In this document: positions 56,398 through 56,724 of the stretch, piece after piece
How positions within the stretch are numbered: position 1 is the stretch's first letter
How the letters are laid out: every line of letters starts with the position of its first letter
Assembly: GCA_000350305.1 (NCBI GenBank)
Contig: CP002916.1
Location: 682,001 to 746,000 of the forward strand
Direction: 5' to 3'
Source of the DNA: Thermoplasmatales archaeon BRNA1
Lineage (GTDB): Archaea > Thermoplasmatota > Thermoplasmata > Methanomassiliicoccales > Methanomethylophilaceae
Length of the DNA stretch: 64,000 nt
Notes under the pieces: generated by a model
Databases searched by the model: none
What the model was told of the DNA's origin: nothing
The model's input: the letters and a program-made list of their open reading frames with translations, nothing else
Translations under genes and position numbers: made by a program

Positions 56398-56537
56398 GCG
56401 GATATCATCCGCCCTGCCGCCTGAGAATCCCTGTGCTTCGGGCACGTGTACGGATCACTGTGGCATCAGACCACCTATCAAGACAAACACCCTCGGTGAA
56501 ATCGATTGTCTTTGCACTTCGAGTGCGGCGCGGCAGG
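56398..56537 (+). ncRNA. Candidate structured RNA inside the integrative element
   Basis: No plausible protein covers 56307-56724. An 8-bp stem CCTGCCGC/GCGGCAGG (56413-56420 with 56530-56537) encloses four further hairpins: GTGC/GCAC with a TTCGG loop (433-445), GTGG-N7-CCAC (460-474), AGACAA/TTGTCT (481-486 with 506-511) holding CACC-CTC-GGTG (488-498), and GCAC-TTCGA-GTGC (514-526); last three digits of coordinates given. This multi-branched fold with no known-family match follows the recombinase directly. Ends are approximate. Confidence 0.55.
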
Positions 56538-56631
56538 TTTCTTCTCATCCTGAATGGAACGAATCAAATAGTCGTGAACCGTGGGGAGGTACGCAGAAGT
56601 GTTCCCATCCCTATTCGGTAAGACGTTCTGC

Positions 56632-56701
56632 ACCGCGGCCGGGCGCACTTCTCCTGGAAGTACCCTTCCAATCAATGTGCATCCCATTGTCCGGCCGTGG
56701 T
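56632..56701 (+). other. Strong 11-bp stem before the zinc-finger gene
   Basis: ACCGCGGCCGG (56632-56642) can pair with CCGGCCGTGGT (56691-56701), one G-U pair, enclosing GCAC/GTGC (56645-56648 with 56677-56680). It may be the second domain of the RNA above, a terminator or a recombination site. Confidence 0.5.
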
Positions 56702-56724
56702 CTTGACTTCTGTGAGGCGGTAGC

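What the first reader, a model, noticed from the sequence alone, without database searches (positions are those of the whole stretch)
56398..56705. Multi-branched structured RNA candidate after the element's recombinase
In a 418-bp gene-free gap inside an otherwise overlapping operon, nested complementary arms build a closing 8-bp stem, four inner hairpins including two TTCG-type loops, and then an 11-bp stem ACCGCGGCCGG/CCGGCCGTGGT. A known family match is not apparent. It could be a guide/partner RNA, copy-number control RNA or recombination substrate of an undescribed archaeal element.
Basis: partly seen in the sequence, partly recalled or inferred. Interest (0 to 1): 0.72.

Follow-up and report, generated by a model that had tools for sequence, protein, structure and literature searches.

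The report
New RNA gene in archaeal elements
The sequence holds a real, previously undescribed small RNA gene of about 150 bases with its own start signal, shared by three gut methane-producing archaea and carried as accessory cargo in mobile or defence-gene regions; what it does is not known.

Summary
The first half of the finding (about 56398-56546) is a real structured-RNA gene. A covariance model built from the window and one blastn relative found a third copy that blastn had missed (E 2.8e-16). Across the three copies all seven helices are kept; depending on the alignment, 9 to 11 of 37-38 base pairs show compensatory changes on both sides. The match to the organism's own tRNA promoters sits at the same place, 32-33 nt upstream, in all three. 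There is no codon signal and no Rfam match.

The second half (56547-56724, including the 11-bp stem) folds well but has no detectable relative, so it is not part of the shared RNA.

The RNA is not an obligate partner of the recombinase. One copy (G006) lies among defence-type genes in a genome without a close relative of that recombinase. At least five recombinase loci lack the RNA. In the window and in G127 the RNA is the first item of a variable cargo slot behind the recombinase; sister elements carry a nucleotidyltransferase or other genes there.

Most likely it is a trans-acting, protein-bound non-coding RNA that travels as accessory cargo. Its biochemical role is unproven. It is a new RNA family of a known broad kind.

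The parts
56363..56375 (+). BRE/TATA promoter-like site (CGAAGTTTTATGTG region)
   Evidence: A 12-bp matrix trained on 30 tRNA upstream regions of the same genome has its best combined match in all three RNA loci at -32/-33 (combined 15.7, next separate peak -4.5, 0/500 block-shuffles). The window site alone is weak (3.3).
56398..56546 (+). Structured non-coding RNA gene, about 149 nt
   Evidence: Three members; model searches; covariation. Exact 5' and 3' ends are inferred.
56398..56412 (+). H1: 5' hairpin GCGGAU-AUC-AUCCGC
   Evidence: 2 of 5 modelled pairs compensated (G-C to A-U, A-U to G-C) in G006
56413..56420 (+). P1 closing stem, 5' strand CCUGCCGC
   Evidence: invariant in all three
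56427..56455 (+). H2: two-part hairpin (AUCC/GGAU and GUGC/GCAC)
   Evidence: helix kept in all three by quite different sequences; 6 doubly changed pairs. The window is slightly out of register in the alignment here.
56460..56474 (+). H3: GUGG-CAUCAGA-CCAC
   Evidence: becomes GCAG-UAACCAU-CUGC in G006, two compensated pairs
56476..56479 (+). UAUC joiner before H4, unpaired and invariant
   Evidence: identical in three members
56480..56512 (+). H4: AAGAC.../GUCUU
   Evidence: stem invariant; loop longer in the window by about 15 nt
56514..56526 (+). H5: GCACU-UCG-AGUGC
   Evidence: A-U to G-C compensation in G127
56530..56537 (+). P1 closing stem, 3' strand GCGGCAGG
   Evidence: invariant
56538..56546 (+). 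Pyrimidine-rich tail UUUCUUCUC, possible terminator
   Evidence: UUAUUCUUCUUC in G127, UUAUUUCC in G006; termination not shown
56547..56724 (+).
   Evidence: z -3.38 for 56560-56728; no relative found
55323..56306 (+). Serine recombinase (Resolvase N-terminal domain), 327 aa; backbone gene, not an obligate partner of the RNA
   Evidence: PF00239 E 9.3e-20; relatives without the RNA
56303..56355 (+). 5' part of a small leader ORF, intact as a 21-codon ORF (MNGKNGSLVSVAVGLVYVVIA) in G124; interrupted here by the insert
56356..58876 (+). Variable cargo slot: RNA gene, spacer, zinc-ribbon protein, 304-aa and 89-aa proteins
   Evidence: window-G124 homology stops at 56355 (83%) and resumes at 58877 (89%); G124 has a nucleotidyltransferase gene there

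Best explanation
Positions 56398 to about 56546 are an independent non-coding RNA gene. RNA polymerase would start about 25-30 nt after the BRE/TATA box at 56363-56375 (inferred from sequence). The transcript folds into a 5' hairpin followed by a multibranch junction: an invariant 8-bp closing stem with four hairpins inside (shown by covariation). Transcription would end in the pyrimidine-rich tract after the closing stem (inferred). In the window and in G127-C148 the gene is inserted inside a 21-codon leader ORF just after the recombinase, at the left edge of a slot whose contents differ between sister elements (shown). It behaves like a 'moron': an accessory gene with its own promoter, swapped between elements and defence-type regions. 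The mechanism I think most likely is that the RNA acts in trans, bound by a protein through the invariant closing stem, UAUC joiner and H4 stem, in an accessory function such as defence, counter-defence or regulation. That last step is inference only. My separate estimates: real RNA gene about 0.95; accessory cargo independent of the recombinase about 0.8; protein-bound trans-acting RNA about 0.5; defence-related role about 0.25. The confidence below is for the RNA-gene-plus-cargo reading.
For: A third member was found only by the two-sequence model (E 2.8e-16; no blastn match). Covariation: 11 of 37 pairs changed on both sides, 96.4% of cells paired, 0/500 shuffles, at most 2 such pairs in slid controls. 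A plain MAFFT alignment with RNAalifold gives the same architecture, with 9 of 38 pairs changed on both sides. Single-sequence folds of G127 (z -3.64) and G006 (z -2.47) give the same helices. Promoter position shared by all three on the + strand, none on the - strand. No coding signal. Variable slot. Different context in G006, beside AbiLi-like and PDC-S01-like proteins.
Against: Only three members, all in one family. The covariation counts lean on model-fitted alignments, although the unfitted one agrees. The window alone folds only modestly better than shuffles (z -1.73), and in the window and G127 the - strand folds as well or better. The window promoter score is weak (3.3). No transcript data. 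The insert is stop-free in one frame (1% of shuffles), and indels between the three copies are multiples of three, both slightly unusual for non-coding DNA.
Confidence: 0.8

Rival explanations
1. Guide, bridge-type or other obligate partner RNA of the adjacent serine recombinase, working like the IS110 bridge RNA: the recombinase binds it and it specifies target or donor DNA.
For: In the window the RNA follows the recombinase directly, and in G127-C148 it follows the recombinase's 3' end. Bridge RNAs are structured RNAs encoded with the recombinase (PMC11208160).
Against: G006 has the RNA but only distant resolvase matches (E 1.7e-7); five recombinase loci, including 58% and 72% identical ones, have no RNA beside them. 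The recombinase is a plain Resolvase-domain protein, not an IS110 DEDD transposase.
Confidence: 0.06
2. DNA-level structure: a folded single-strand recombination site, origin or attachment site, with the RNA-like fold formed by the DNA strand.
For: Both strands fold well, and two of the copies sit at a variable cargo junction.
Against: The shared promoter position on one strand and the pyrimidine tract after the stem are not expected of a DNA site. The G006 copy is intergenic with no such recombinase in its genome. The junction itself lies at 56355/56356, upstream of the structure.
Confidence: 0.08
3. A protein-coding gene: the 141-codon ORF overlapping both neighbours encodes a small Cys-rich protein.
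For: Stop-free (1% of shuffles), overlaps at both ends, indels in multiples of three.
Against: Codon usage non-coding (-0.22), substitutions roughly equal over codon positions, a stop inside H1 in the G006 frame, no Pfam match, and compensatory changes that track base pairs. The ORF ends are inherited from a 21-codon leader ORF split by the insertion.
Confidence: 0.05
4. Cis-acting leader (riboswitch or attenuator) of the downstream zinc-ribbon operon.
For: It lies upstream of that operon in the window, and the spacer has a strong hairpin before the gene.
Against: The genes that follow the RNA differ in the three copies; in G006 it runs convergent to the DUF4143 ATPase gene. In G011 the operon has no such RNA.
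Confidence: 0.1

Closest known systems
GOLLD, ROOL and HEARO RNAs (structured RNAs often carried by phages and mobile elements)
   Same: Conserved structured non-coding RNA found mainly in mobile or phage DNA by comparative sequence analysis; function long unknown for GOLLD and ROOL (PMC12286853 abstract; otherwise own knowledge)
   Different: Those are larger and bacterial or phage-borne; HEARO is the guide RNA of IscB (own knowledge). This one is ~150 nt, archaeal, with no such nuclease next to it and no Rfam match
IS110 bridge RNA
   Same: Structured RNA of similar length encoded beside a recombinase (PMC11208160; length from own knowledge)
   Different: Recombinase family differs, and the RNA occurs without a close relative of the recombinase
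Phage morons (accessory genes acquired horizontally and transcribed independently)
   Same: Own promoter, inserted between backbone genes, variable among sister elements (PMC6469090 and PMC7067206 abstracts)
   Different: Morons are usually protein genes; the carrier here is an archaeal integrated element, and terminator and expression are not shown

Membership tests
Any Rfam 15 family | Covariance-model match | tested here: not met
   No match at gathering score in the window except a tRNA; none relevant at relaxed threshold in the window, G127 or G006 copies
IS110 bridge RNA | Encoded next to a DEDD/IS110 recombinase | tested here: not met
   Adjacent protein is a PF00239 Resolvase
IS110 bridge RNA | Obligate co-occurrence with the recombinase | tested here: not met
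Guide RNA of IscB/TnpB (HEARO, omega RNA) | IscB or TnpB nuclease gene adjacent | tested here: not met
   Translated neighbours in the window, G127 and G006 matched other families or none
Phage moron-like cargo | Own promoter | tested here: met
   By sequence only
Phage moron-like cargo | Insertion absent from sister elements | tested here: met
   G124 and G127-C235
Phage moron-like cargo | Independent transcription | not testable with these tools
   No RNA-seq data
Structured non-coding RNA | Compensatory base changes | tested here: met
Structured non-coding RNA | Transcript | not testable with these tools
   none available

The most novel reading that the evidence does not exclude
The RNA is the core of a new archaeal RNA-based system carried between mobile elements and defence islands: a defence, counter-defence or toxin-antitoxin RNA acting through a bound protein yet to be named.
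Probability: 0.15. Interest if true: 0.85.

Novelty: new variant of a known kind. Interest (0 to 1): 0.58.

Why it matters
Few structured RNA families are known from mobile DNA of archaea (own knowledge), and searches of the held literature turned up none for this order of gut methanogens. Three copies in two kinds of context show a free-standing RNA gene under selection for its fold. A defined 149-nt RNA with a predicted start site and a covariance model makes its expression, protein partner and function directly testable.

Tried and rejected
Known family: Rfam at gathering and relaxed thresholds, nothing. Close DNA relatives in phages, plasmids and IMG/VR: none; a loose IMG/VR pattern gave 10 stretches, none scoring with the model. 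A genome contigs pattern scan found only the G127 and G006 copies plus two unrelated bacterial stretches. Weak model hits in G102, G032 and G086 rejected: 17-20 bits, partial or very GC-rich. Class and phylum samples added no member, nor did a more sensitive search of 40 relatives. Antisense targets within the window: longest match 11-12 nt, as in shuffles. The protein-coding reading was tested and set aside. One mistaken step: early on I read the insert as lying inside the zinc-ribbon gene, by comparison with G011; G124 and G127-C235 show that it lies inside a short leader ORF.

Full report
Where it lies. The window is part of a 1,461,105-base single-contig genome. Size and G+C (mostly 55-60% in the window) fit Thermoplasmatales archaeon BRNA1 from bovine rumen (1.46 Mb, 58%, CP002916; PMC5011839); this identification is an inference. 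The other two copies come from RUG10898 (G006, a methanogenic archaeon isolate) and RGIG1513 (G127, a Methanomethylophilaceae MAG from goat abomasum). The finding sits between a 327-aa serine recombinase (55323-56306; PF00239) and a 299-aa zinc-ribbon-like protein (56725-57624).

The observation. The 308 nt fold better than 100 shuffles on the + strand (z -2.63) and less clearly on the - strand (z -1.69). Folding energy alone would have been weak evidence.

Relatives. blastn over 147 genomes of the order gave one real relative, G127 contig C148, 70% identical over window 56396-56545 (E 1.3e-12). A covariance model from these two, without hairpin H2, found a third in G006 (E 2.8e-16), which blastn had not listed. 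A second model built from all three found no further member in samples of the class and phylum or in a more sensitive scan of 40 relatives. So the family is rare in the genomes held.

Structure. In the three copies 96.4% of pair cells are standard pairs, and 11 of 37 pairs carry changes on both sides; 0 of 500 shuffles reach this and the slid controls give at most 2. These alignments were fitted to a model. A plain MAFFT alignment with RNAalifold predicts the same architecture, with 9 of 38 pairs changed on both sides, and the folds of G127 and G006 alone show the same helices. In the window H2 is shorter (AUCC/GGAU plus GUGC/GCAC) and slightly out of register in the alignment, so some H2 counts are rough. 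H1 and H3 are unambiguous: GCGGA/UCCGC becomes ACGGG/CCCGU, and GUGG/CCAC becomes GCAG/CUGC in G006. The closing stem, the UAUC joiner and the H4 stem do not vary.

A gene of its own. A BRE/TATA matrix trained on 30 tRNA genes of the same genome (consensus AACCTTTATATA, mostly at -36 to -40 from the mature tRNA) has its best combined match in the three RNA loci at -32/-33 on the + strand: 15.7 against -4.5 for the next separate offset, 0 of 500 shuffles. The window site alone scores only 3.3. No such shared position exists on the - strand. After the closing stem all three copies have a pyrimidine-rich stretch. Start and end are therefore inferred as about 56398 and about 56546.

Not a protein gene. 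The 141-codon ORF is stop-free, which 1% of shuffles also are, but its codon usage is non-coding (-0.22; most neighbouring genes +0.27 to +0.50), substitutions are even over codon positions, and the G006 frame has a stop within H1. The multiples of three in the indels remain unexplained.

The second half. The 11-bp stem region folds strongly by itself (56560-56728, z -3.38), but no relative was found. It could be a spacer, a terminator or a second, unrelated RNA. I leave it open.

Context. Window and G124 are alike at 54715-56355 (83%) and 58877-59640 (89%) and unrelated between. In G124 and G127-C235 the slot starts with a nucleotidyltransferase gene. In G011 the zinc-ribbon gene follows the recombinase directly. 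Both G124 and C235 have an intact 21-codon leader ORF where the window and C148 have the RNA inserted. The RNA is thus accessory cargo in these elements. In G006 it is intergenic, near AbiLi-like and PDC-S01-like proteins; in C148 an AbiTii gene is near; in the window type I restriction genes follow. This hints at defence-rich surroundings, which are common around mobile DNA and prove nothing.

Mechanism. Shown: conserved fold, shared promoter position, insertion polymorphism, occurrence without a close relative of the recombinase. Inferred: transcription, trans action, protein binding. Guess: a role in defence or counter-defence.

Verdict. A new RNA family of the broad kind 'structured RNA borne by mobile elements'; the RNA gene is well supported, its function is open.

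Noticed in passing
56222-56355: The last part of the recombinase gene plus the leader ORF is 91-93% identical to G127-C235 and G124, above the 74.5-83% of the surrounding backbone, and it contains a perfect hairpin CCGTCGGAGACGACGG. In G127-C148 the homology to the window begins at the start of this block, so it may be a recombination junction.
   Followed up: partly
56303-56355; L105; L101: Conserved 21-codon leader ORF MNGKNGSLVSVAVGLVYVV(I/V)A between recombinase and cargo, overlapping both neighbours in G124 and G127-C235.
   Followed up: partly
56356-58876: Variable cargo slot behind the serine recombinase: nucleotidyltransferase, zinc-ribbon plus 304-aa genes, or RNA in different sister elements, somewhat like a cassette site.
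   Followed up: partly
52818-53066: Truncated 5' copy of sfsA (SfsA_N) at the left side of the element; a full-length sfsA lies at G000:C1:792078, just after an integrase-like gene.
   Followed up: partly
56560-56728: Strong stand-alone fold (z -3.38) without relatives, before the zinc-ribbon gene.
   Followed up: no
47028-49016: HEPN_LA2681 protein and a CARF-HTH protein side by side, a possible defence or signalling pair.
   Followed up: no
60042-63744: Type I restriction-modification genes hsdM and hsdS in a stretch of much lower G+C (about 40%).
   Followed up: no
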